In this document: positions 34,700 through 46,487 of the stretch, piece after piece
Position numbering within the stretch: the stretch's first letter is position 1
Layout of the letters: every line of letters starts with the position of its first letter
NCBI RefSeq assembly: GCF_003709565.1
Contig: NZ_QNRC01000003.1
Location: forward strand, 1-64,000
Reading direction: 5' to 3'
Source: Paracoccus sigandri
GTDB lineage: Bacteria > Pseudomonadota > Alphaproteobacteria > Rhodobacterales > Rhodobacteraceae
DNA: 64,000 bases
The notes under the pieces: generated by a model
Database searches by the model: none
The model's input: the letters and a program-made list of their open reading frames with translations, nothing else
What the model was told of the DNA's origin: nothing
Made by a program: the position numbers and the translations under genes

Positions 34700-34746
34700 T
34701 TGACACAACTGTTTCGATGAAGGCTAATAAAGAGACACTTGTTTCG
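34700..34746 (+). promoter_or_regulatory. Promoter and direct repeats before the RpiR gene
   Basis: TTGACA at 34700-34705, then 17 bases, then GCTAAT at 34723-34728, a near-consensus sigma-70 promoter in an AT-rich pocket. Two TGTTTCG heptamers at 34710-34716 and 34740-34746 are 30 bases apart, bracketing the -10 region. They may be the RpiR operator. Confidence 0.5.
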
Positions 34747-34772: not shown

Positions 34773-35654
34773 ATGCCCCTGCAGCAGATCTGGCAGTTGA
34801 TCGAGACCCGCTATGGCGGCTTTTCCCCGCAGTTGCAGCGCGCGGCCAAATTCGTGCGCGAGAACCCGCAAGAGGTCGCGCTGCAATCCCTGCGCAACAT
34901 CGCCGGCCGGGTGGGCGTGTCGCCCGCCACGATGACGCGGCTGATGCAGGCGCTGGGTTTCGACACCTGGGAGGCGTTCCAGGCCGTCCACCGGCAATGG
35001 CTGACCGAGGGCCAGCGCGGCGTCTTCTCGGGTCCCGCCGACCGGGTGATCGCCGATGCCCGCCGGCCGGGGGCCGAGGACCTGCTGCTGGATTCCATGG
35101 CCCATGCCGAGCGTTTCAACCTGGAGGCCGCGCTGGGGCCGCAGGCGCGCGAGGCGCTGCGCCAGGCGGCGGCGCTGCTGGCCGCGGCACCCACCGTCGC
35201 GGTGGCGGGGCTGCGCAGCTGCTTTCCGGTGGCCTACGGGCTGCATTACGCGCTGTCGCTGTTTCTGCCGGGCACGCGGCTGATGCCGGGGATCGGCGGC
35301 ACGCTGCTGGACGAATTGCACCATCTGCGGCCGGGCGACGCGCTGGTCGCCATCTCGATCGCGCCCTACAGCCGCGAGACCGTCGATCTGGCGCGGCTGG
35401 CGCATGAGGCCGGCGTGAAGACCGTCGGCATCACCGACGGGCCGCTGAGCCCGATCGCCCGCAACGCCGACATCGCGCTGAGCGCGCGCACCGACAGCCC
35501 CTCGCACCTGGCCTCGCCCATCGGGCTGATGGCCCTGTCGCAGGCGCTGGCCATGCTGGTCCTGGTGCGGGCGGGCGACGCCGCGCTGGAAACCATGCGC
35601 CACCGCGAAGCCGTTTTCGAGGCCACTTCCGCTTACCTTCCAGTCCAGGGCTGA
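34773..35654 (+). CDS. MurR/RpiR-family regulator
   Basis: A 293-residue regulator. N-terminal HTH_6 domain (1-77; SLRNIAGRVGVSPATMTRLMQALGF) and C-terminal SIS domain (about 120-265; VAVAGLRSCFPVAYGLHYAL, then VAISIAPYSRETVDLARLAHEAG). SIS domains normally bind phosphosugars, but RpiR members next to TRAP and amino-compound operons respond to other ligands. It is first in a tight operon: three bases separate it from the aminotransferase, so it is probably autoregulated and controls the aminotransferase, BKACE and TRAP genes. Confidence 0.9.
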   Translation: MPLQQIWQLIETRYGGFSPQLQRAAKFVRENPQEVALQSLRNIAGRVGVSPATMTRLMQALGFDTWEAFQAVHRQWLTEGQRGVFSGPADRVIADARRPGAEDLLLDSMAHAERFNLEAALGPQAREALRQAAALLAAAPTVAVAGLRSCFPVAYGLHYALSLFLPGTRLMPGIGGTLLDELHHLRPGDALVAISIAPYSRETVDLARLAHEAGVKTVGITDGPLSPIARNADIALSARTDSPSHLASPIGLMALSQALAMLVLVRAGDAALETMRHREAVFEATSAYLPVQG

Positions 35655-35657
35655 CCC

Positions 35658-37019
35658 ATGACCACCAACCGCACCCGCATCCATCACCGCGACCCCCGCC
35701 ACGACCTGCCCATGGCGGCAGGCGGCGACGGCCCCTTCGTCATCGACAGCGCCGGGCGGCGCTATCTGGACGCCTCGGGCGGCGCGGCGGTGTCCTGCCT
35801 CGGCCACAGCGAGCGCCGCGTGATCGAGGCGATCAAGGCGCAGCTGGACCGCCTGCCCTATGCCCATACCGGCTTCTTCACCAACGAACCGGCCGAGGCG
35901 CTGGCCGATCACCTGACCAGCCGGGCACCCCGTGACGATCTGCGGGAACTGGGCCATGTCTATTTCGTCTCGGGCGGCTCCGAGGCCAACGAGACCGCGA
36001 TGAAGCTGGCCCGGCAGTATTTCTTTGAACGCGGCGAGACCGGCCGACGGCATTTCATCGCCCGGCGCCAAAGCTATCACGGCAACACCATCGCGGCGCT
36101 GTCGGTGGGCGGCAATGCCGGGCGGCGCGCGGTCTATGAACCGATCCTGCTGCCGGCCAGCCATATCGCCCCCTGTTTCGAATACCGCCACCGCGCCGAG
36201 GACGAGACGCCCGAGCAATATGCCATCCGCGCCGCCGACGAGCTGGAGGCCGAGATCCTGCGCCTGGGCGAAGGCAGCGTGATCGCCTTCATCGCCGAAA
36301 CCGTGGTCGGCGCGACCGCCGGGGCGGTGACGCCCGCACCCGGCTATTTCCAGCGCATCCGCGAGATCTGCGACCGCCATGGCGTGCTGTTGATCCTCGA
36401 CGAGGTGATGAGCGGCATGGGCCGGATCGGCCAGCTTTACGCCTGCGACCATTACGGCGTGGTGCCCGACATCCTGACCTGCGCCAAGGGGCTGGGGGCG
36501 GGCTATCAGCCGATCGGCGCGGTGCTGATGTCGGACCACATCCACGACACGATCATCGCGGGCTCGGGCGCCTTCCAGCACGGCTTCACCTATATCGGCC
36601 ACGCCACCGCCTGCGCCGGCGCGCTGGCCGTGCAGCGGGTGATCGAGGAGGACGGGCTGCTGGAAAACTGCCGCAACATGGGCGCGGCCCTGCGCGGGCA
36701 GCTGCGCGAGACCTTCGGGGACAAGCCGTGGTTCGGCGATCTGCGCGGCGAGGGGCTGTTCATCGGGCTGGAGCTGGTCCAGGATCGCGCCACGAAACGC
36801 CCCTTCGACCCGGCCCTGCGGCTGCACGCCAGGATCAAGGCGGCGGCGATGGCCGAGGGGCTGATGGTCTATCCGGCGGGCGGCACGGCGGACGGGCGCG
36901 CGGGCGACCATGTGCTGATCGCGCCCTCGTTCATCATCGACGAAACCCATGTCGGGCTGATCGTGGAACGGCTGGACCGCGCCATCGCAAGCGCGCTGGC
37001 CGAGGCGGTCCCGGCATGA
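35658..37019 (+). CDS. Class III pyridoxal-phosphate aminotransferase
   Basis: A 453-residue fold-type I aminotransferase of the omega-amino acid/beta-alanine-pyruvate group. Visible: GGSEANETAMKLARQ (PLP phosphate site), SYHGNTIAALSV, DEVMSGMGRIG and the Schiff-base lysine in TCAKGLGAGYQPIGAV near residue 277. Such enzymes move a terminal or beta amino group to pyruvate or 2-oxoglutarate. Its stop overlaps the next gene, a beta-keto acid cleavage enzyme, which suggests the product is a beta-keto acid, i.e. the substrate is a beta-amino acid. The exact substrate cannot be read from sequence. Confidence 0.9.
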   Translation: MTTNRTRIHHRDPRHDLPMAAGGDGPFVIDSAGRRYLDASGGAAVSCLGHSERRVIEAIKAQLDRLPYAHTGFFTNEPAEALADHLTSRAPRDDLRELGHVYFVSGGSEANETAMKLARQYFFERGETGRRHFIARRQSYHGNTIAALSVGGNAGRRAVYEPILLPASHIAPCFEYRHRAEDETPEQYAIRAADELEAEILRLGEGSVIAFIAETVVGATAGAVTPAPGYFQRIREICDRHGVLLILDEVMSGMGRIGQLYACDHYGVVPDILTCAKGLGAGYQPIGAVLMSDHIHDTIIAGSGAFQHGFTYIGHATACAGALAVQRVIEEDGLLENCRNMGAALRGQLRETFGDKPWFGDLRGEGLFIGLELVQDRATKRPFDPALRLHARIKAAAMAEGLMVYPAGGTADGRAGDHVLIAPSFIIDETHVGLIVERLDRAIASALAEAVPA

Positions 37020-37873
37020 GCGCCCCCTTCGCCATCGCCGTGGCGCCGAACGGCGCACGGCGCGGCCAGGCAGATCATCCCCGCCTGCCCCTGACCGCGC
37101 CCGAGATCGCCCGCGACGCCACTGAGGCGCTGGAGGCGGGCGCGGCGATGATCCACCTGCATGTGCGCGACGCGGCGGGCGGGCATGTGCTGGACGCGGA
37201 TCTCTATCGCGAGGCGACCGAGGCGGTGCGCCGCGCGGTGGGCGACCGGCTGGTCATCCAGATCACCACCGAGGCGGTGGGCCGATATACGGCCACGCAG
37301 CAGATCGCGCTGGTCGACGCGCTGCACCCCGAATCGGTTTCCATCGCGCTGCGAGAGATCCTGCCCGAAGACGGCCCCGAAGATGGCGGCGAATCAGCCG
37401 CCGCCGCCCTGTTCCAGCGGATGGAGACGGCCGGCATCCTGCACCAGATCATCATCTATGACGCCGCCGAATTGCAGCGGCTGGACCGGCTGGCGGCGCG
37501 CGGCGTGCTGCCCGACGGGCCGCTGGCGGTGCTGGCGGTGGCCGGGCGCTATACTGAGACGGGCGCGACCATGGCGGAACTTGATGCCTATCTGGCCGCG
37601 GGGATCGACCGGCATCAGTGGATGCTCTGCGCCTTCGGCCCGCAGGAGGCCCGCTTCATGGCCCGCGCGGCGATGGCGGGCGGGCATGCGCGGGTGGGCT
37701 TCGAGAACAATCTTTGGTTGCCTGACGGCACGCTTGCGCCGAACAATGCGGCTATCGTCGCGGCCACCGCGGCGGCTTCAGCGGATGCCGGACGGGTGCT
37801 TGCCGATGCGGCAGGCTTGCGGGCAAGCTGGCGGCAGAGTAGTCGGGCCGCCCGGCAAAATTCGGTCGCGTGA
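37016..37873 (+). CDS. Second beta-keto acid cleavage enzyme (BKACE)
   Basis: A 285-residue DUF849 protein. Zn ligands H47 and H49 lie in [10 protein letters not shown] and E230 in RVGFENN. It is clearly diverged from the carnitine BKACE at 20034: the stretch after the Zn loop and the substrate-binding loop ([13 protein letters not shown] versus [12 protein letters not shown]) differ. This places it in another BKACE subgroup, so a different beta-keto substrate is expected. It begins inside the aminotransferase gene (ATGA overlap). Family reaction: beta-keto acid plus acetyl-CoA gives acetoacetate plus acyl-CoA. Confidence 0.88.
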
Positions 37874-37959
37874 CGCGCGCTCCGATAGGCGCGCGCCCGA
37901 GGGGGCGCGCAGAGGCAAGAAACGGCCCCGACAGGGGGTATGATGGAAGGAGAGTTGAA

Positions 37960-38934
37960 ATGACATCCCGGAAACTGATCGGCCTTGGTCTGGCCGCCGC
38001 AATGGCCGGCAGCCTGGGGGCGGGTGCCGCCAGCGCGCAGCAGCAATTCGTCACCATCGGCACCGGCGGCGTCACCGGCGTCTATTACGCCGCGGGCGGC
38101 GCGATCTGCCGGCTGATGAACCAGACGCGCGAGGAACACGGCTTCCGCTGCTCGGCCGAGGCGACGGGCGGGTCGGTGTTCAACCTCAACGCCATGCGCC
38201 AGGGTGAATTCGACCTGGGCCTGGTCCAGTCCGACTGGCAGTATCACGCGCTGAACGGCACATCGAGCTTCGAGGATGCCGGCCCCTGGGAAGACCTGCG
38301 CGCGGTGTTCTCGGTCCATCCCGAGCCCTTCACCGTGGTCGCCCGGCCCGATGCCGGAATCGCCGGGATCGACGACCTGCGCGGCAAGCGCTTCAATATC
38401 GGCAACCCCGGCTCGGGGACGCAAGCCTCGGCCGATCTGCTGATCGAGACGCTCGGCTGGAGCCGCTCGGACTTCTCGCTAGCGGCGGAACTGCGCGCCG
38501 ACGAACACGGCCCGGCGCTGTGCGACAACCAGATCGACGCCTTCTTCTATGGCGTCGGCCACCCGTCCGCCAATATCGCCGACCCGACCACGACCTGCGG
38601 CGCCAAGATCGTGCCGCTGGAGGGCGAGGCGATCGACCAGCTGGTCGAGGAAAATCCCTATTACGCGCAGGTGAACATTCCGGGCGGGCTCTATACCGGC
38701 AACCCGGACGACATCCCGACCTATGGCGTGCTGGCGACGCTGGTCGCCTCGACCGACGTGTCCGAGGAAGCGGTCTACAACCTGGTCCGCTCGGTCTTCG
38801 AGAATTTCGACAGCTTCCGCAGCCTGCACCCGGCCTTCGCCAACCTGACGCCCGAGGAGATGGTCCAGAATGGCAACTCGGCGCCGCTGCATCCGGGCGC
38901 CGAACGCTATTACCGCGAGCAGGGCTGGCTCTGA
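37960..38934 (+). CDS. TAXI-family TRAP substrate-binding protein
   Basis: A 324-residue periplasmic binding protein. Signal peptide 1-26 (cleavage near ASA-QQQFV), then the TAXI signature [32 protein letters not shown] and [13 protein letters not shown]. It has four cysteines, two of them close together (LCDNQ and TTCGAK). It is made from ATG 37960 with GGAAGGAG upstream; the longer frame starting at 37870 has no signal peptide. The 86-base gap from the BKACE gene keeps it in the operon. Substrates known for TAXI proteins are few, mostly amino acids and small acids. Confidence 0.92.
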
Positions 38935-38947
38935 CGCGCATGAAACC

Positions 38948-38977
38948 GGCCGGGGCGGATAGAAGCCCGCCCCGGCC
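38948..38977 (+). other. GC hairpin between TRAP binding protein and permease
   Basis: Perfect 11-bp stem GGCCGGGGCGG / CCGCCCCGGCC with an 8-base loop, 13 bases after the binding-protein stop. It has no T-run. It probably stabilises the upstream mRNA or lowers permease expression. Confidence 0.6.
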
Positions 38978-39022
38978 TCCGGTCACGACAAGATAACAAG
39001 AACCGCAGGGAGAATCCGGCTC

Positions 39023-41650
39023 ATGAATGCTGCAAGCACCGACAGGGACCGGCAGGCCGAAGAGCTTGCCCGCATGGTCGCGGAATCCGATACCGGCGGG
39101 CGCAGCCCCGCCGACCGCCCGACGCGCCTTCTGCTGCTGCTGGTGCCGCTGGCCTGGTCGCTGTTCCAGCTGTGGTATGCCTCGCCGCTGCCCTACCAGC
39201 TTGGCTTCGGGGTCTTCAACGCGACCGAGGCGCGGGCCATCCACCTGGCCTTCGCGATCTTCCTGGTGTTCATGGCCTATCCCGCCTTCGTCGGCTCGCC
39301 GCGCGACCGGGTCCCGGTGCTGGACTGGGTCTTCGCGCTGGCCGGGGCCTTCTGCGCCGGATACCTGTATCTCTACCAGACCGAGCTTGCCCGCCGGCCC
39401 GGCCTGCCGACGACGATGGACCTGGTGGTGGCGGTGGCCGGGATGCTGTTCCTGCTGGAGGCCGCGCGGCGGTCGCTGGGGATCGCCCTGCCGATCGTGG
39501 GCAGCCTGTTTCTGGCCTATGCCTTCCTGGGGCCGCATCTGCCGGGGCTTCTGGCGCATCGCGGCGCCTCGCTGTCGCGCGCGGCCTCGCAATACTGGCT
39601 GACGACCGAGGGCGTCTTCGGCGTCGCCCTTGGCGTCTCGACCAGCTTCGTCTTCCTGTTCGTGCTGTTCGGCGCCCTGCTGGAGCGCGCCGGCGCGGGC
39701 AACTATTTCATCAAGGTGGCCTTCGGACTGCTGGGCCACCTGCGCGGCGGACCGGCCAAGGCCGCCGTGCTGGGTTCGGCCGCGACCGGACTGATCTCGG
39801 GGTCCTCGGTGGCCAATGTCGTCACCACCGGCACCTTCACCATCCCGCTGATGAAGCGCACCGGCTATCCGGCGGTGAAGGCCGGCGCCATCGAGGTCTC
39901 GGCCTCGGTCAACGGCCAGATCCTGCCGCCGGTCATGGGCGCCGCCGCCTTCCTGATCGCCGAATATGTCGGCATCGCCTATGCCGAGGTGGTCAAGCAC
40001 GCGATCATCCCGGCGCTGCTGACCTATCTGTCGCTGTTCTACGTCGTCGATATCGAGGCGCGCAAATACCGCCTGTCGGGCTTGCCGCGGGTGCGGCACC
40101 GCTCGGGGGCGGTCAGCCTTGCCATCGGCGGCATGACCATCTCCGGCTTCATCCTGTTCAGCGCGGCGGTCTATTACGGGCTGGGCTGGACGCGCAGCCT
40201 GTTTGGCGCCAGCGCCAGCTGGGCCGTCGCCATCGGCACGCTGGCCATCTATGTCGCGCTGATCGCGGTGCGCGCCCGCTTCCCGGACCTGGAGGAGGAC
40301 GACCCCGAGAAGCTGGCCCAGGGCCTGCCCGACGCGGCCAGGATCGCCCCGGCGGGCATCCATTACGCGCTGCCGGTCTTCATCCTGGTCTGGTGCCTGA
40401 TGGTCGAGGAACTGTCGCCCGGCCTCTCGGCCTTCTACGGCACCTGCGCGCTGCTGTTCCTGGTGGCGACGCAGCATTCGCTGATCGCGCTGTTCCGGGG
40501 CGAAGCCGACTGGATCGCGCCGCTGAAGGCCGGGGCGGTCGATGTCGTCGAGGGGCTGGTCACCGGCGCGCGCAACATGATCGGCATCGGCATCGCCACC
40601 GCCGCCGCCGGGATCGTGGTCGGCACCGTGGCGCTGACCGGCATCGGGCTGGTGCTGGCGGAACTGGTCATCACCGCATCGGGCGGCAACCTGCTGATCA
40701 TGCTGCTGATGACGGCGCTGATCTGCATGGTGGTCGGGCTGGGGATGCCGACGACAGCGAACTATGTCGTCGTGGCGACGCTGCTGGCCCCGGTCATCGT
40801 CGAGGTCGCCACGCTGAACGGCCTGGCGGTCGCGCTGGTGGCGGTTCACCTCTATGTCTTCTATTTCGGGCTGATGGCCGATGTGACGCCGCCGGTGGGG
40901 CTTGCCTCCTTCGCGGCCTCGGCGATCTCGCGCGCGGATCCGCTGAAGACCGGGGTGCAGTCCTTCCGCTACGAGATGCGCACCGCGATCCTGCCGCTGA
41001 TCTTCATCTACAACCAGCAGCTTCTGCTGATCGGCATCAGCAGTTGGCTGCATCTGGTGGTCGTGGTGGTCGGATCGCTGATCGGGATGCTGATCTTCGT
41101 CTCGGTCACGCAGGGCATCTTCGTGACCCGCAGCCGGCTGTGGGAATCGGCGGTGCTGCTGTTCGCCTGCTTCATGATGTTCCGCCCCGGCTTCTTCATG
41201 GACCGGATCGAGGACCCCTATACCGACCAGCCCGCCGCCGAGATCGTCGCGCTGGCCGAGGCCGTGCCGCAGGGCGGCTTCCTGCGCTTCGAGGTCGAGG
41301 GGATGGACCTGTCGGGCCAGGACTATACCCGGCTGGCGCAGCTGCCGATGGGCGAGGCCGGGCGGCCGGGGGCCGAGCGGCTGAACGCCGCGGGCGTCCA
41401 GATCATGGAGTTCGGCGGCCAGGTCCAGGTGATGAACGTCGCCTTCCGCAGCCAAGCCGACCGCCTGGGGCTGGAGGCCGGCCAGAACGTCAGCCGCGTG
41501 CTGCTGCCCAATACCGACCGGATGACCGCGGAATGGATGTATGTCCCGGCGCTGCTGCTGATCGGCCTGATCGGGCTGTTGCAATGGCGCCGCCGCGACT
41601 GGGACCAGCCCGGCATGCCCACCGCCGCCGAGCGTCGCCGCGCGGCCTGA
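39023..41650 (+). CDS. Fused TRAP transporter permease (4TM/12TM) with C-terminal DUF3394
   Basis: An 875-residue membrane protein. Residues about 35-200 correspond to the small DctQ-like part, about 200-650 to the large DctM part (GSAATGLISGSSVANVVTTGTFTIPLMKR, then NGQILPPVMGAAAFLIAEY, GLGMPTTANYVVVATLLAPV and a VTPPVGLASFAASAIS re-entrant loop). The C-terminal region (about 690-860) is a soluble DUF3394-type domain seen in TAXI permeases, flanked by last helices. Sodium-driven uptake of the compound bound by the TAXI protein. Last gene of the RpiR operon; converges on the dehydroshikimate dehydratase gene. Confidence 0.92.
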   Translation: MNAASTDRDRQAEELARMVAESDTGGRSPADRPTRLLLLLVPLAWSLFQLWYASPLPYQLGFGVFNATEARAIHLAFAIFLVFMAYPAFVGSPRDRVPVLDWVFALAGAFCAGYLYLYQTELARRPGLPTTMDLVVAVAGMLFLLEAARRSLGIALPIVGSLFLAYAFLGPHLPGLLAHRGASLSRAASQYWLTTEGVFGVALGVSTSFVFLFVLFGALLERAGAGNYFIKVAFGLLGHLRGGPAKAAVLGSAATGLISGSSVANVVTTGTFTIPLMKRTGYPAVKAGAIEVSASVNGQILPPVMGAAAFLIAEYVGIAYAEVVKHAIIPALLTYLSLFYVVDIEARKYRLSGLPRVRHRSGAVSLAIGGMTISGFILFSAAVYYGLGWTRSLFGASASWAVAIGTLAIYVALIAVRARFPDLEEDDPEKLAQGLPDAARIAPAGIHYALPVFILVWCLMVEELSPGLSAFYGTCALLFLVATQHSLIALFRGEADWIAPLKAGAVDVVEGLVTGARNMIGIGIATAAAGIVVGTVALTGIGLVLAELVITASGGNLLIMLLMTALICMVVGLGMPTTANYVVVATLLAPVIVEVATLNGLAVALVAVHLYVFYFGLMADVTPPVGLASFAASAISRADPLKTGVQSFRYEMRTAILPLIFIYNQQLLLIGISSWLHLVVVVVGSLIGMLIFVSVTQGIFVTRSRLWESAVLLFACFMMFRPGFFMDRIEDPYTDQPAAEIVALAEAVPQGGFLRFEVEGMDLSGQDYTRLAQLPMGEAGRPGAERLNAAGVQIMEFGGQVQVMNVAFRSQADRLGLEAGQNVSRVLLPNTDRMTAEWMYVPALLLIGLIGLLQWRRRDWDQPGMPTAAERRRAA

Positions 41651-41696: not shown

Positions 41697-43583
41697 TCAG
41701 CCCTTGACGCGCGGCAGGCCGGCCGGGCGCATGCTGCGTTTCTGCGCGGCGATGCGGAAGGGCGCATTGGGCGCGCCATAGCCGTCATAGCCGTCGCAGC
41801 GCTGCACGATCTCGAAGAACAGCCCGCCTGCCAGCGGCTGGCTATAGAACTGGAAAAACCGCCCCGCGCCATCCTCGTCATACATGATGTCATGGGCGCG
41901 CAGCCGCGCCATCAGCGCGGGGTCCAGCCCGAACCGGGCCTCGATGTCGTCGAAGTAATTGGCGCCGATCTTCAGCACCGGAAAGCCGCGCGCCGCCATC
42001 GCCCTTGCCGTCGCGAAGATGTCGTCGCTGGCGAAGGCGATATGCTGGACGGCCGAGCCGAAGGTCTCCTCGATGAAGCGCCCGGCAAGGGTGTGGCGGG
42101 CCTCGGCGCCGTTCAGCGTCACCCGCAGCGCGCCCGCCCGGATCGCCTGGCTGCGCACCAGCCCGTCGGGGTCCACGACATCGACCATCGGCGTCCTGTC
42201 GGCCTTGAACAGCGTGGTGTAGAACAGCGACCAGCTCAGCATTTCCTCATAGGCCATGGTCTGCGCCAGGTGGTCGATCCGCACCAGCCCCGCCCCCGCC
42301 GGGTCGGGATTGCTGACCTCGAAATCGACCTCCCACAGCCGGGACAGGCGGGACTTGCCGTCGACGAAGCGGATGACGCTGCCGCCGACGCCGCGGATGC
42401 CGGGGATGTCCAGCTCGTCGGGCTGATGGGCCGGGTCATGGGGCAAGGCGCGCAGGGCCACGGCGCGGTCATAGCTGTCCTGCGCATCGGGAACGCGCAG
42501 CGCGATCTCGGACACGCCGGTGCCGTGGGTCAGCCAGGCGCTGTGGGCGAAGCCCTCGGTTTCCGCATTCACCAGCAGGTTGACGCCGTTCTGGCGCCAC
42601 AATGAGACCTGTTTCGAGCGATGCCGGCCCGCATGTTCGAACCCGGCCGAGGCCAGCAGCGCCTCCAGCGCGGGCGCGTCCTCGGCGCTGGTCGCGAATT
42701 CGACGAATTCGCAATCCTCGACCGGGGCCGGGGCGGGAAAGTCGGGCAGGTCGGGCGTCAGCGCCGGTTCGTCGCGACGCACTTGGTCGGCCAGCGCGAT
42801 CAGGCTGCGGATGCCGTCCTGCGCCACCAGCCGGGGCAGGCCGGACCGGAACTGGTCGTTGAAGATCTCCAGGCTCAGCGGCCCCGCATAGCCGGTCGCC
42901 AGGACCGCGCGGGTGAAGGCGCCGACATCCAGGTCGCCCTCGCCCGGCATGTTGCGGAAATGGCGCGACCAGTAGAGCAGGTCCATCTCGATCGCCGGCG
43001 CATCGGCCAGCTGGACGAAGAAGATCCGGTCGCCGGGAATGCTGCGGATCGTGTCGGGATCGGTCTTGCGGGCCAGCGTGTGGAAACTATCCAGGATCAG
43101 CCCGACATTGGGGTGATCGGCGCGGCGCACGATCTCCCAGGCGTCGCGGTGGTCGCTGACATAGCGCCCCCAGCACAGCGCCTCATAGCCGACGCGGATG
43201 CCGTATGTCGCGGCCAGCTCGCCCAGCTCGCGGAAATCGGCGGCGGCGCGGTCGATGCCGCCCATCGCCTGCGGATGCAACGTCGAGCAGACCAGGACCA
43301 GGTCGGTGCCCAGTTCGTTCATCAGCTGGAACTTGCGCTCGGCACGGGCGAAGGCGCGGCCGCGATGCGGTTCGGGCAGGCCCTCGAAATCGCGGAACGG
43401 CTGGAACAGGGTGATTTCCAGCCCGTGATCGCGCACCATCCGCCCGACCTCTTGCGGCGTATGGTCCGAGGCCAGGAAATCCTGCTCGAAAATCTCGATC
43501 CCGTCGAAACCCGCCTGCGCAATGGCCGCCAGCTTCTCGCGGAAGCTGCCGGAGATCGAGACCGTGGCGATCGAGGTTTTCAT
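41697..43583 (-). CDS. quiC: 3-Dehydroshikimate dehydratase, two-domain type
   Basis: A 628-residue protein. The N-terminal half (about 1-270) is a sugar-phosphate-isomerase TIM barrel with metal ligands expected in YEALCWGRYVSDH, LILDSFHT, FVQLADAP and LSLEIFND. The C-terminal half (about 290-610) is a 4-hydroxyphenylpyruvate-dioxygenase-like VOC fold keeping the His-His-Glu set (VRIDHLAQ, VQHIAFASDD, FFEIVQR). This is the architecture of QsuB/AsbF-related dehydroshikimate dehydratases, which turn 3-dehydroshikimate into protocatechuate; the dioxygenase-like half has no established oxygenase role. It is divergent from a LysR gene and near two shikimate dehydrogenase-like genes. Confidence 0.9.
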   Translation of the reverse strand: MKTSIATVSISGSFREKLAAIAQAGFDGIEIFEQDFLASDHTPQEVGRMVRDHGLEITLFQPFRDFEGLPEPHRGRAFARAERKFQLMNELGTDLVLVCSTLHPQAMGGIDRAAADFRELGELAATYGIRVGYEALCWGRYVSDHRDAWEIVRRADHPNVGLILDSFHTLARKTDPDTIRSIPGDRIFFVQLADAPAIEMDLLYWSRHFRNMPGEGDLDVGAFTRAVLATGYAGPLSLEIFNDQFRSGLPRLVAQDGIRSLIALADQVRRDEPALTPDLPDFPAPAPVEDCEFVEFATSAEDAPALEALLASAGFEHAGRHRSKQVSLWRQNGVNLLVNAETEGFAHSAWLTHGTGVSEIALRVPDAQDSYDRAVALRALPHDPAHQPDELDIPGIRGVGGSVIRFVDGKSRLSRLWEVDFEVSNPDPAGAGLVRIDHLAQTMAYEEMLSWSLFYTTLFKADRTPMVDVVDPDGLVRSQAIRAGALRVTLNGAEARHTLAGRFIEETFGSAVQHIAFASDDIFATARAMAARGFPVLKIGANYFDDIEARFGLDPALMARLRAHDIMYDEDGAGRFFQFYSQPLAGGLFFEIVQRCDGYDGYGAPNAPFRIAAQKRSMRPAGLPRVKG

Positions 43584-43731
43584 CGCATCCTCCGTGACGA
43601 TGGGTATCCCTCAAGCATGGCAGGAACGGAAATAACGGCAAGTATATGGTTGTCCGTTTGATTAACACAAAGTTACGCGATGCCTTTCGGGCGGGCTTGA
43701 CGCAGGCGGGGGCTTCTGCGTCCATCCGGGA

Positions 43732-44670
43732 ATGAAGGAACTGACGCTGCGCCAGGTGGAAGTGATCCGCGCCGTGATGATGGCGGGGACCATCCAGGGT
43801 GCGGCGAAGCTTCTGAACGTCTCGGCCCCCGGCATTTCGCGGCTGGTCAAGCATACCGAGGAATCGCTTGGCATCCGCCTGTTCGAACGCAAGGCGGGGC
43901 TGTTCGTTCCCTCCTCGGAGGCCGAGACGATCTTCGAGATCGTCCACCAGGTCCATCGGCAGATGGAGAACCTGAACACCGCCGTCGCCGCGCTGAAGAA
44001 GGGCGAGGATGTGCGGCTGTCCTTCGCCTCGGCCCCCTCGATCGCGCAGTTCATCGCCGCCCGCGCCATCCGCGGGGTCCGCAAGCGCTTTCCCGACCTG
44101 TTCATCGACCTGAACATCCTGAAGATCGAGGAGACGGTCGACTACCTTCTGCTGGACCGCGGCGAATTCGTGGTGATGAGTTCGCCGATCGACAATCCCG
44201 CCCTGGACAACGTGCTGCTGGCCCGAGGCCGTCTTGTCGCCATCGTGCCGGAAAATCATCCTCTTGCCGCGAAAAGCTCGATTTCGGTTCATGACTTGGC
44301 GCGCGAGGATTTCGTGGGCGTCGACCCCAGGGACCCCTATGGCGCGATCCTGGCCCAGCCCTTCGCGGAGGCGGGCATCCCGCTGCGCTATGCGATGCGC
44401 GGGCGCTTCGCGCAGACCGTGGTCAGCCTGGTGCGGCACGGCCTGGGGGTGGCGGTCATCGACGAATTCTCCGTGGCCGAGGTCTACATGCCCGGCGTCG
44501 CCCGGCGCCCGCTGGCCGAAAGCGCCGGCATCACCGCCTGGGTGGTGTCGCGGAAGGGCCGGCAGCTGTCCAGCTTCGCCGAATATGCGATCGAGCGGTT
44601 CCGCCGCGAAATGGCCGCCGCCATCGCCCGCGAGAGCTGGGACAACCCGCCGCGCGGGCCTGCGGCCTAG
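43732..44670 (+). CDS. LysR-type regulator beside dehydroshikimate dehydratase
   Basis: A 312-residue LysR protein. HTH at 1-62 (LTLRQVEVIRAVMMAGTIQG, VSAPGISRLVKHTEESLG), effector domain about 90-295. It is divergent from quiC with a 148-base AT-rich promoter region, so it probably controls quiC with dehydroshikimate, shikimate or protocatechuate as signal. Its stop codon overlaps the IclR gene coming from the other side. Confidence 0.9.
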   Translation: MKELTLRQVEVIRAVMMAGTIQGAAKLLNVSAPGISRLVKHTEESLGIRLFERKAGLFVPSSEAETIFEIVHQVHRQMENLNTAVAALKKGEDVRLSFASAPSIAQFIAARAIRGVRKRFPDLFIDLNILKIEETVDYLLLDRGEFVVMSSPIDNPALDNVLLARGRLVAIVPENHPLAAKSSISVHDLAREDFVGVDPRDPYGAILAQPFAEAGIPLRYAMRGRFAQTVVSLVRHGLGVAVIDEFSVAEVYMPGVARRPLAESAGITAWVVSRKGRQLSSFAEYAIERFRREMAAAIARESWDNPPRGPAA

Positions 44671-45464
44671 GCCATCTCCTCGATCCGGCGCCTGAAATAG
44701 ATCGAGGCGCCCGCCGCGTGCGACATCTCCTCGACCGCCGCGAGGAGCGGCGGGCCCAGCTCCTCCATCCGCGCCGCGTCCAGCAGGATCGACGGCCCCG
44801 CGATCGAGACCGCCCCCAGCGCGCGGCCGTCCCGGCGCAGGATCGGCGCGGCGATGGCCGCCATGCCGGGGATGAAGCTGTCGGTGGTGATCGCGAACCC
44901 CTTGCGGCGCGTCTCCTCCAGCCGGGCGATCAGCGCCGCGGCCGAGCCCGGCGCGCCGGGTCCCGAGAATTCCTGCGTGAACCCCTGCTGCGCGACCTTC
45001 ATCAGCGCGGCCTCGTCGCTCATCGTCGACAGCCAGGCCAGCCCGCTGGCCGAGCTTGCCAGATGCGCCGTCGCCCCCTGCTCGCGCCCCGGATCATAGC
45101 GCAGCCCGGTCGTCGCCCCCTGCGCCACCGCGACCCAGACCAGGCTGTCGCCGTCGATGACGCTCAGCCGGACAAGGTGGCGGCTCTCGGCGGCCAGGCG
45201 GTCCAGGATCGGCTGCGCGACATCGGTGATCCCGCTTTGCGCCAGATAGGACAGGCCAAGCGCGGGCAGCTTCATCCCCAGGACATAGACGCCCTTCGCG
45301 CCCTCCTGGTGGACATAGCCATATTCGACCAGCTGCTTCAGCATCCGGTGGACCCCGCTTGGCGGCAGGTCCAGTTCCGACGCGATCTGCCCCACCGCCA
45401 TGCCATCCGGCCGCTTCGACAGCAGATCCAGAAGCGCCAGACCACGTTCAAGCGACGAACTCAT
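44667..45464 (-). CDS. IclR-family regulator
   Basis: A 265-residue IclR regulator. Winged HTH at 1-60 (LERGLALLDLLSKRPDG, LPPSGVHRMLKQLVEYGYV), then the IclR effector domain (about 80-255; SVIDGDSLVWVA, GMAAIAAPILRRDG, LGAVSIAGPS). ATG 45464 follows GGCGGAGGTGGG. It is divergent from the 45687 operon; the shared 222-base region contains two near-perfect IclR-type boxes. Family members often control aromatic-acid genes (PcaR, PobR), which agrees with the neighbours. Confidence 0.92.
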   Translation of the reverse strand: MSSSLERGLALLDLLSKRPDGMAVGQIASELDLPPSGVHRMLKQLVEYGYVHQEGAKGVYVLGMKLPALGLSYLAQSGITDVAQPILDRLAAESRHLVRLSVIDGDSLVWVAVAQGATTGLRYDPGREQGATAHLASSASGLAWLSTMSDEAALMKVAQQGFTQEFSGPGAPGSAAALIARLEETRRKGFAITTDSFIPGMAAIAAPILRRDGRALGAVSIAGPSILLDAARMEELGPPLLAAVEEMSHAAGASIYFRRRIEEMA

Positions 45465-45505
45465 CCCACCTCCGCCAGCATTTTACACACCTGCCAGTTC
45501 CGAAG

Positions 45506-45520
45506 TGGAACAGTATTCCA
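45506..45520. promoter_or_regulatory. IclR box 1
   Basis: TGGAA-CAGTA-TTCCA: perfect 5-bp arms, the same length and arm sequence as the known E. coli IclR box (TGGAAATNATTTCCA). It overlaps the likely -35 region of the iclR-type gene (its -10 TAAAAT is at 45480-45485 on the minus strand), so it suggests autoregulation. An overlapping GTTCC-GAAGT-GGAAC repeat starts at 45497. Confidence 0.6.
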
Positions 45521-45582
45521 GTTTTTTTGTCAGGGCAAGCCATGAAGATTTCCATTTTGTACCAGTGCATTGGACCTTGAAC

Positions 45583-45611
45583 TTGAGATCGGAAGCTGCT
45601 CGCCTTAAAAT
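45583..45611 (+). promoter_or_regulatory. Sigma-70 promoter of the hydroaromatic operon
   Basis: TTGAGA (45583-45588), 17 bases, TAAAAT (45606-45611). The start of transcription would fall at about 45618, inside IclR box 2. It is the best promoter in this AT-rich region and leaves a leader of about 70 bases before the first gene. Confidence 0.55.
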
Positions 45612-45626
45612 TGGAACATAATTCAA
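45612..45626. promoter_or_regulatory. IclR box 2
   Basis: TGGAA-CATAA-TTCAA, one mismatch from the perfect repeat and sharing TGGAACA with box 1. Lies immediately after the -10 element, a position for repression. The two boxes are 106 bases apart (about ten helical turns), which would allow looping. Confidence 0.5.
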
Positions 45627-45686
45627 CTATTGACTGTTATTTGATTTCTGGCAAGTTCCCACCGGAACAGGAGGAGATTCTGCCCG

Positions 45687-46487
45687 ATGCGACTGGACGG
45701 AGAAACGCGGCTCATCCCGATTCTGGGCGACCCGATCGCGCAGGTGAAATCGCCCGCCCTGCTGGGCCGTCGGCTGGCCGAGGCCGGGCTGAACGCCATC
45801 GTGCCGCCGGCCCATGTCCGCCCCGGCGATTTCGCCGCGGTCGTCGACGGCCTGAAGCGGATTGGCAATCTGGACGGTTTCATCGTCACCATCCCGCACA
45901 AGTTCGCGGCCGCGGCGATCTGCGACCGGCTGAGCGATCGCGCGGATTTCCTGGGCGCGGCCAATGTCCTGCGCCGGCAGGCGGATGGCGCCTGGCTGGG
46001 CGATCACTGCGACGGCCAGGGCTATGTCGCGGGCATCCGGGCCGAGGGCGGGCGGATCGAGGGCCGCTCGGTCCTGCTGGTCGGCGCGGGCGGGGCGGGA
46101 TCGGCCATCGCCTATGAATTCCTGGACCAGGGGGCGGGTTCGATCGCCATCCATGACGCGGATGCCGCGCGCCGCGACGATCTGGTCCAGCGGCTGACGG
46201 CGCGCTTTCCCGGCCGCGCGCAGGCCGGCGGCCCGGACCCGGCCGGCCATGACATCATCGCCAATGCCACGCCCCTGGGGATGGGTCCCGACGATCCCTT
46301 CCCCGTCGATCCAAGGGCCCTGCATCCCGGCCAGTTCGTCACCGATTGCGTCACCCGGCCCGAGGTGACGCCGCTGATCGCCCGTGCGCGGGCCGCCGGC
46401 TGCGCCACGATGACCGGGCTTGGCATGTTCGACGGCGTGGCGGCGCGCATGGTGGCGTTCTTCACCCGCCAAGCCGGCGCCGCCTGA
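45687..46487 (+). CDS. Shikimate/quinate dehydrogenase-like protein 1
   Basis: A 266-residue AroE-fold protein. Substrate domain 1-105 with GDPIAQVKSP, catalytic lysine in VTIPHKFAAAA and partner aspartate in HCDGQGYV; NAD(P) domain from LVGAGGAGSAIAYEF at about 132. Closing INATPLG-like motif is ANATPLGMG. The absence of the strict SxS serine pair (SPALL present, but VK before it) sets it apart from biosynthetic AroE, so it is likely a catabolic enzyme for a hydroaromatic acid. First gene of the IclR-controlled operon; ribosome site GGAACAGGAGGAG. Confidence 0.87.
   Translation: MRLDGETRLIPILGDPIAQVKSPALLGRRLAEAGLNAIVPPAHVRPGDFAAVVDGLKRIGNLDGFIVTIPHKFAAAAICDRLSDRADFLGAANVLRRQADGAWLGDHCDGQGYVAGIRAEGGRIEGRSVLLVGAGGAGSAIAYEFLDQGAGSIAIHDADAARRDDLVQRLTARFPGRAQAGGPDPAGHDIIANATPLGMGPDDPFPVDPRALHPGQFVTDCVTRPEVTPLIARARAAGCATMTGLGMFDGVAARMVAFFTRQAGAA

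What the first reader, a model, noticed from the sequence alone, without database searches (positions are those of the whole stretch)
34773..41650. RpiR - aminotransferase - BKACE - TAXI/TRAP operon: a probable undescribed amino-compound degradation route
Five genes in one direction, most coupled by 3-base gaps or ATGA overlaps, combine uptake (TAXI-TRAP), deamination (class III aminotransferase), carbon-carbon cleavage (BKACE) and regulation (RpiR). Chemistry implied: a beta-amino acid is imported, transaminated to a beta-keto acid, then split with acetyl-CoA. The BKACE differs in its substrate loop from the carnitine BKACE in the same window, so its substrate is not 3-dehydrocarnitine. I do not recognise this combination as a named pathway.
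Basis: partly seen in the sequence, partly recalled or inferred. Interest (0 to 1): 0.65.

Follow-up and report, generated by a model that had tools for sequence, protein, structure and literature searches.

The report
Glutamate-like amino acid breakdown operon
Five neighbouring bacterial genes probably import a glutamate-like amino acid, strip its amino group and break down the product, using an odd branch of a known enzyme family that has lost its usual catalytic residues, so its chemistry is probably not the textbook one.

Summary
The operon is real: RpiR 34773-35654, class III aminotransferase 35658-37019, BKACE homologue 37016-37873, TAXI 37960-38934, fused TRAP permease 39023-41650. Two near-palindromic operators overlap its promoter and are 2 of 4 exact matches in the genome. 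Synteny is conserved: in a sample of 385 genomes of the class, 33 of 45 with this BKACE branch have the aminotransferase within 3.5 kb. Cleavage with acetyl-CoA is therefore unlikely. The TAXI protein is 56% identical to glutamate-binding VcGluP and keeps its key residues. Best reading: a 3-amino dicarboxylate (my candidate: beta-glutamate) is imported, transaminated to 3-oxoglutarate and decarboxylated to acetoacetate. A glutamate-like ligand and deamination are well supported; the exact substrate and the BKACE reaction are inferred. BKACE looks like an accessory step: many genomes keep the aminotransferase without it. No description was found in the paper searches made.

The parts
34700..34730 (+). 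Promoter-like TTGACA (34700-34705) and TAATAA (34725-34730), 19-base spacer
   Evidence: sequence read; TTGAC invariant in the 8-sequence alignment
34702..34715 (.). Operator copy 1, GACACAACTGTTTC (near-palindrome GANACANNTGTTTC)
   Evidence: 0.13 matches expected in the window; 4 exact matches in the genome
34732..34745 (.). Operator copy 2, GAGACACTTGTTTC, 30 bases downstream of copy 1
34773..35654 (+). RpiR/MurR-family regulator, 293 aa (HTH_6 + SIS)
35658..37019 (+). Class III aminotransferase, 453 aa (PRK07483 / NF005685)
37016..37873 (+). BKACE-family (PF05853) TIM-barrel protein, 285 aa, non-canonical branch: R15, E86, S109, E114, Q144, I146, N231 (window numbering); Zn ligands H47, H49, E230 kept
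37960..38934 (+). TAXI-family TRAP solute-binding protein, 324 aa (start chosen by me); glutamate-type pocket
39023..41650 (+). Fused TRAP permease, 875 aa (DctM + C-terminal DUF3394)

Best explanation
An RpiR-controlled catabolic operon for a glutamate-like amino acid. The TAXI/TRAP system imports it (inferred from the pocket). The class III aminotransferase removes the amino group (family shown, substrate inferred). The BKACE-fold zinc protein acts on the resulting beta-keto dicarboxylate. Because its branch has lost the residue proposed as the base for acetyl-CoA-dependent cleavage, and has gained invariant or near-invariant Arg and Glu at positions that align with the Kce active site, I propose that it does not use acetyl-CoA but decarboxylates the beta-keto acid, with zinc holding the enolate. 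My specific candidate is beta-glutamate (3-aminoglutarate) to 3-oxoglutarate to acetoacetate + CO2, with acetoacetate then activated by 3-oxoacid CoA-transferase encoded elsewhere in this genome. Shown: gene content, conserved synteny, operator pair, residue changes, pocket residues. Inferred: ligand, direction of transamination, decarboxylation.
For: Synteny: of 81 BKACE-branch loci, 53 have the aminotransferase within 3 kb, 34 TAXI within 5 kb, 48 RpiR within 3.5 kb and 28 all five genes, in both orientations. In a class sample, 33 of 45. Regulation: operator pair. Ligand class: TAXI 409 bits and 56% identity to VcGluP, whose most important ligand residues are Y45 and Q93 (PMC11574862 passages); Y45, S75, Q93 and E125 are kept in the window and in 34 of 39 TAXIs of these loci, with 2 truncated and 3 divergent. 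Some relatives without a nearby TAXI carry GlnH/GlnP-type ABC genes (L042, both over their NCBIfam cut-offs; R. leguminosarum annotation) or a glutamate/aspartate SBP (L024, over its cut-off). Beta-keto chemistry: in L041 and L027 an enzyme most like L-carnitine dehydrogenase (below that model's cut-off) stands next to this BKACE instead of the aminotransferase, and Microvirga ossetica has a similar pair. Loss of base: I143 and N231 in 81 of 81; E171L abolishes activity in the Paracoccus enzyme. Precedent: BKACE group G6 is described as 'not BKACE, presenting decarboxylation activity', with 16 cases of beta-ketoglutarate activity (PMC4922564 section 22). Downstream: two scoB/pcaJ-family genes in this genome. 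In L196 scoA/scoB-family genes, and in L211 a thiolase-like gene, stand next to the aminotransferase.
Against: TAXI pockets near the aminotransferase do not differ in their core from those without it: 58 of 58 further TAXIs (the best-scoring loci of two searches) keep Y45, S75, Q93, H123 and E125, and positions 157/201 do not separate the two sets, so L-glutamate itself cannot be excluded as TAXI ligand. In the class sample 60 of 93 genomes with the aminotransferase have no BKACE of this branch beside it, and the two states are intermixed on the tree (10 changes). Identity of this branch with group G6 could not be tested, since its sequences and logos were not held. Invariant E86 or E114 might serve as a substitute base, which would keep cleavage possible. 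Some members sit beside other enzymes, e.g. a BhcC-like protein in L217. One of the two scoB/pcaJ-family genes lies near another BKACE gene of the genome (C83), so it may belong there. No residue was mapped to an actual structure: coordinates of the model were not available to me.
Confidence: 0.42

Rival explanations
1. One reading: a beta-amino acid is transaminated and the BKACE performs the usual acetyl-CoA-dependent cleavage, with another residue (e.g. invariant E86 or E114) as base.
For: Fold, zinc ligands and R226 are kept; the best structural matches are BKACEs (Z about 28-32); aminotransferase plus beta-keto-acid enzyme is chemically coherent.
Against: The proposed base and D231 are replaced in 81 of 81 homologues, while 30 of 40 sampled family members and the nine solved family chains whose alignments were printed keep both.
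Confidence: 0.25
2. The module handles L-glutamate or glutamine derivatives rather than a 3-amino acid: the TAXI is an ordinary L-glutamate importer, and the aminotransferase and BKACE homologue act on another compound or use glutamate as amino donor.
For: Pocket core shared with L-glutamate TAXIs; a TAXI-TRAP of Cereibacter sphaeroides is required for sodium-dependent growth on L-glutamate (PMC12632250 passages).
Against: A dedicated class III aminotransferase, RpiR and BKACE homologue in one operon seem unnecessary for L-glutamate (inference); position 157 is T instead of D and 201 is G instead of M in the window protein, though such changes also occur in TAXIs without the aminotransferase.
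Confidence: 0.25
3. The transporter belongs to the neighbouring quinate/shikimate-type genes (QuiC-like 41697-43583, shikimate dehydrogenase-like 45687-46487).
For: Adjacency in the window.
Against: The QuiC-like gene is convergent, on the other strand, and no QuiC match was listed in any of the 81 loci (flanks up to 8 kb) although it was a query; TAXI goes with the aminotransferase.
Confidence: 0.03

Closest known systems
BKACE / 3-keto-5-aminohexanoate cleavage enzyme (Kce, 2y7d; Paracoccus BKACE15, 8rip)
   Same: TIM barrel, Pfam PF05853, zinc ligands, R226; Tyr145 of Kce is also Tyr
   Different: About 27% identity; Kce E14 is R, G84 is E, T111 is E, E141 is Q, base E143 is I, D231 is N
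BKACE group G6 of Bastard et al. 2014 (seen only as described in PMC4922564)
   Same: A group called 'not BKACE' with decarboxylation activity on beta-ketoglutarate would fit the lost base and an acidic substrate
   Different: Membership not testable here: no G6 sequences or logos were held
VcGluP/VcGluQM glutamate TAXI-TRAP (8S4J)
   Same: 56% identity; Y45, S75, Q93, E125, Y200 kept; permease with a C-terminal extension (here DUF3394; that these correspond is inferred)
   Different: S40G, D157T and M201G in the pocket; here in an operon with aminotransferase and BKACE homologue
Carnitine-type operon with carnitine dehydrogenase and BKACE (recalled)
   Same: A 3-substituted acid turned into a beta-keto acid, then a BKACE-fold enzyme; some members of this branch pair with a carnitine-DH-like enzyme
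   Different: Aminotransferase in place of the dehydrogenase; pocket signature differs from the other BKACE in the window

Membership tests
BKACE (PF05853) | Profile match over the whole chain and same fold | tested here: met
   216.9 bits; TIM barrel, pLDDT 92.6; Kce Z 32.3, rmsd 2.8, 263 residues aligned
BKACE (PF05853) | Zinc ligands H46, H48, E230 | tested here: met
   81 of 81 homologues and the window protein; that these are the ligands is recalled for Kce
BKACE, functional sense (acetyl-CoA-dependent cleavage) | Catalytic base Glu (Kce E143 / Paracoccus E171) | tested here: not met
   Ile in the window and in 81 of 81 homologues; E171L inactive (PMC11961710 section 9); equivalence inferred from the place two residues before the conserved Tyr
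BKACE, functional sense (acetyl-CoA-dependent cleavage) | Asp231 next to the zinc-binding Glu | tested here: not met
   Asn in the window and in 81 of 81 homologues
BKACE, functional sense (acetyl-CoA-dependent cleavage) | Conserved Tyr (Kce Tyr145; PMC12871164 passages) | tested here: inconclusive
   Tyr in the window, 77 Tyr and 4 Phe in homologues; but many canonical members have Phe there, so the feature does not discriminate
BKACE group G6 | Active-site pattern of the group | not testable with these tools
   Group described in PMC4922564; logos are figures and were not held; the 2014 paper is not held
Dehydrocarnitine BKACE | Same pocket as the other BKACE of the window | tested here: not met
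   G/R at 14, G/E at 84, E/I at 143, D/N at 231; the carnitine role of that second gene was not tested
TAXI TRAP solute-binding protein | TIGR02122 profile and partner fused permease | tested here: met
   344.1 bits against cut-off 84.35; TRAP_fused 662.8 against 320.65
Glutamate-binding TAXI (VcGluP type) | Ligand residues Y45 and Q93 | tested here: met
   binding itself not tested, and the paper gives these residues in 78% and 54% of TAXIs
Class III aminotransferase PRK07483 | Score above the NCBIfam cut-off | tested here: met
   711 against 485 bits; the model names no substrate
RpiR regulator of this operon | HTH_6 + SIS and a conserved operator at its own promoter | tested here: met
   binding to the operator is inferred

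The most novel reading that the evidence does not exclude
A widespread, undescribed proteobacterial pathway for beta-glutamate (3-aminoglutarate): TAXI import, transamination to 3-oxoglutarate, and decarboxylation to acetoacetate by a BKACE-fold zinc enzyme that has exchanged CoA-dependent cleavage for decarboxylation.
Probability: 0.28. Interest if true: 0.7.

Novelty: new variant of a known kind. Interest (0 to 1): 0.52.

Why it matters
It would give a function to a distinct enzyme branch that is annotated '3-keto-5-aminohexanoate cleavage protein' (seen) and is probably mis-named, and to PRK07483 aminotransferases, whose model names no substrate. It could supply a degradation route for beta-glutamate, a compatible solute (recalled; the review PMC1224877 holds the term 18 times according to the listing, not read). 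It also offers a case of reaction change by loss of a catalytic base inside one fold.

Tried and rejected
Quinate/shikimate uptake by the TAXI/TRAP was rejected: the QuiC-like gene is on the other strand and no QuiC match was listed in the 81 loci. TAXI positions 157/201 as a marker of a non-glutamate ligand failed: AT-linked and unlinked TAXIs share the same letters (four loci with only a short aminotransferase end in the flank fell under that script's threshold and were counted as unlinked). The idea that the aminotransferase always needs the BKACE was rejected. Neighbours of BKACE-branch genes without the aminotransferase were mostly mixed and gave no single substrate; the carnitine-DH-like partner was the useful exception. 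An acetoacetyl-CoA synthetase over the curated cut-off was not found in this genome, but none of the 14 control genomes passed that cut-off either; two CoA-transferase genes were found. The upstream regions of L015 and L016, also printed, lack an exact TGTTTC and were left out of the operator alignment; L228 has more copies and was left out too. Of the 66 rows I fetched 40; the others (this genome's own, near-duplicates by eye, partial matches) were dropped. The fold search of the TAXI model did not list 9oz4, the closest sequence match (against the 50 rows), so its ligand stays unknown to me. The second look at the TAXI model was not collected. Paper searches relevant to this operon found nothing on it: for beta-glutamate, for 3-oxoglutarate, for BKACE + aminotransferase + TRAP (0 papers), for BKACE/DUF849 (18 and 16 papers, none on this operon by title and start of abstract). 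They cover only the held open-access library.
Full report
OBSERVATION. Two of the four junctions are tight (3-base gap, ATGA overlap); the other two are 86- and 88-base gaps. The genome is held as 115 contigs, 4.9 Mb, and has three BKACE-family genes.

REGULATION. Upstream of RpiR the sequence GANACANNTGTTTC occurs twice, at 34702-34715 and 34732-34745, around a TTGACA promoter. With one mismatch allowed it is found nowhere else in the window, against 0.13 matches expected. The genome holds four exact matches, two of them here (the control pattern gave none). In an alignment with seven relatives, TTGAC, the GTTTC of the first copy and parts of the second copy (G..ACA, GTT.C) are invariant. These seven were chosen from ten other upstream regions printed; L015 and L016 lack an exact TGTTTC and L228 has more copies. 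This fits an autoregulated operon. Binding by RpiR is inferred.

SYNTENY. A scan of one genome per species with the BKACE protein gave 158 relatives, of which the best 80 were kept; one more locus came. Of these 81, 53 have the aminotransferase within 3 kb (21 on the same strand, 32 on the opposite one), 34 TAXI within 5 kb, 35 TRAP within 7 kb, 48 RpiR within 3.5 kb and 28 all of them (thresholds by tblastn score; 13 loci have under 4 kb on one side). The set is chosen by similarity, so I also used an even sample of the class (385 genomes): 45 have the BKACE branch at E <= 1e-80, 93 have the aminotransferase at E <= 1e-140, and in 33 of the 45 (own genome included) the listed matches start within 3.5 kb of each other; in 6 the aminotransferase is elsewhere and in 6 it was not found at that threshold. 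The two sets overlap in part: G489 has a contig of the same length as the record of L081, and one aminotransferase of the sample is identical to that of L061. A Thalassospira marina plasmid carries the same five genes in the same order.

THE BKACE HOMOLOGUE. Against Kce, 81 of 81 homologues keep H46, H48, R226 and E230. In 81 of 81, G84 is E, T106 is S, E143 is I and D231 is N; E14 is R in 78 of 81. Of 66 rows of a phylum-wide search with the Pfam model I fetched 40: 30 have the normal E143 and D231, 6 have this signature and 4 depart in another way. The signature group (11 rows) is one side of a branch with SH-aLRT 100 among 52 rows (quick tree). The nine solved family chains whose alignments were printed keep E143 and D231 (one of them, 9zsc, is BsfD, whose reaction diverges from BKACE according to PMC12871164, so a kept Glu does not prove BKACE activity). 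In the Paracoccus enzyme the equivalent Glu (E171) is proposed as catalytic base and E171L abolished activity (PMC11961710, section 9 read); the equivalence rests on its place two residues before the conserved Tyr (PMC12871164 passages). The predicted model is a confident TIM barrel (pLDDT 92.6) closest to Kce. So fold and metal site are BKACE, but the machinery for acetyl-CoA-dependent cleavage is incomplete. PMC4922564 (section 22 read) describes group G6 of Bastard et al. as 'not BKACE, presenting decarboxylation activity', with 16 cases of beta-ketoglutarate activity; I suspect this branch is that group but could not test it.

THE SUBSTRATE. The TAXI protein matches VcGluP (8S4J/9IBO, L-glutamate) at 409 bits and 56% identity. 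Of the residues named in PMC11574862 (passages), V44, Y45, Y46, S75, Q93, H123, E125, G156, Y200 and G203 are kept; S40, D157 and M201 are G, T and G. Of 39 TAXIs in the BKACE loci, 34 keep Y45, S75, Q93 and E125, 2 are truncated and 3 are divergent. Some relatives without a nearby TAXI carry GlnH/GlnP-type ABC genes (L042; annotated as such in R. leguminosarum) or a glutamate/aspartate-type binding protein (L024); others have neither. This agreement points to a glutamate-like ligand. Against a special ligand: 58 of 58 further TAXIs (the best-scoring loci), with or without the aminotransferase nearby, keep Y45, S75, Q93, H123 and E125, and positions 157/201 do not sort them.

THE CHEMISTRY. 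In L041 and L027 an enzyme most like L-carnitine dehydrogenase (below that model's cut-off) stands next to this BKACE branch in place of the aminotransferase, and a Microvirga plasmid shows a similar pair. Both a 3-hydroxy acid oxidised and a 3-amino acid transaminated give a 3-keto acid, so the BKACE homologue probably does see a beta-keto acid. A glutamate-like 3-amino acid is beta-glutamate, and its keto acid is 3-oxoglutarate, which decarboxylates on its own (general knowledge, recalled). That would explain why the BKACE step is optional: of 50 chosen aminotransferases on a tree, 28 with and 22 without an adjacent BKACE are intermixed (10 changes against 16.6 in shuffles, of which well-supported branches force 3), and several genomes keep RpiR, aminotransferase and TAXI together with no BKACE in the stretch examined (L199, L202, L203; L272-L275 and L280 with short flanks). 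The product acetoacetate would feed 3-oxoacid CoA-transferase, of which this genome has two B-subunit-type genes, one of them near another BKACE gene; in single loci such CoA-transferase genes (L196) or a thiolase-like gene (L211) adjoin the aminotransferase.

VERDICT. Operon, synteny, operator and residue losses are shown. A glutamate-like substrate is likely. Beta-glutamate and decarboxylation are my inference. No report of this combination was found in searches of the held open-access library, which does not cover most subscription journals.

Noticed in passing
window 41697-46487: Quinate/shikimate-type genes next door: QuiC-like 3-dehydroshikimate dehydratase (628 aa, minus strand, below that model's cut-off), LysR regulator, IclR regulator closest to BhcR, and a shikimate dehydrogenase-like gene.
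   Followed up: partly
L149, L150, L151, L153: Four of 40 sampled BKACE-family proteins lack the catalytic Glu in other ways (H/Q, H/M or S/A at positions 141/143), suggesting further non-canonical branches.
   Followed up: no
L217:6747-8730 and L218: In two related genomes (one apparently the Kordiimonadales record of L081) this BKACE branch overlaps a gene of one cluster; the L217 protein is BhcC-like (3-hydroxy-D-aspartate aldolase family), below that model's cut-off.
   Followed up: partly
L226:9145-9468: A RidA-family gene follows the BKACE in Rhizobium leguminosarum, which would fit enamine or imine intermediates; the same locus has a C45-family peptidase beside the glnHPQ genes.
   Followed up: no
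window 39023-41650: The fused TRAP permease has a C-terminal DUF3394 domain (about residues 679-858), which may correspond to the periplasmic C-terminal extension described for VcGluQM.
   Followed up: no
L230 and L233: Two further exact operator matches in the genome (C33 and C50); contexts not examined, and they may be chance.
   Followed up: no
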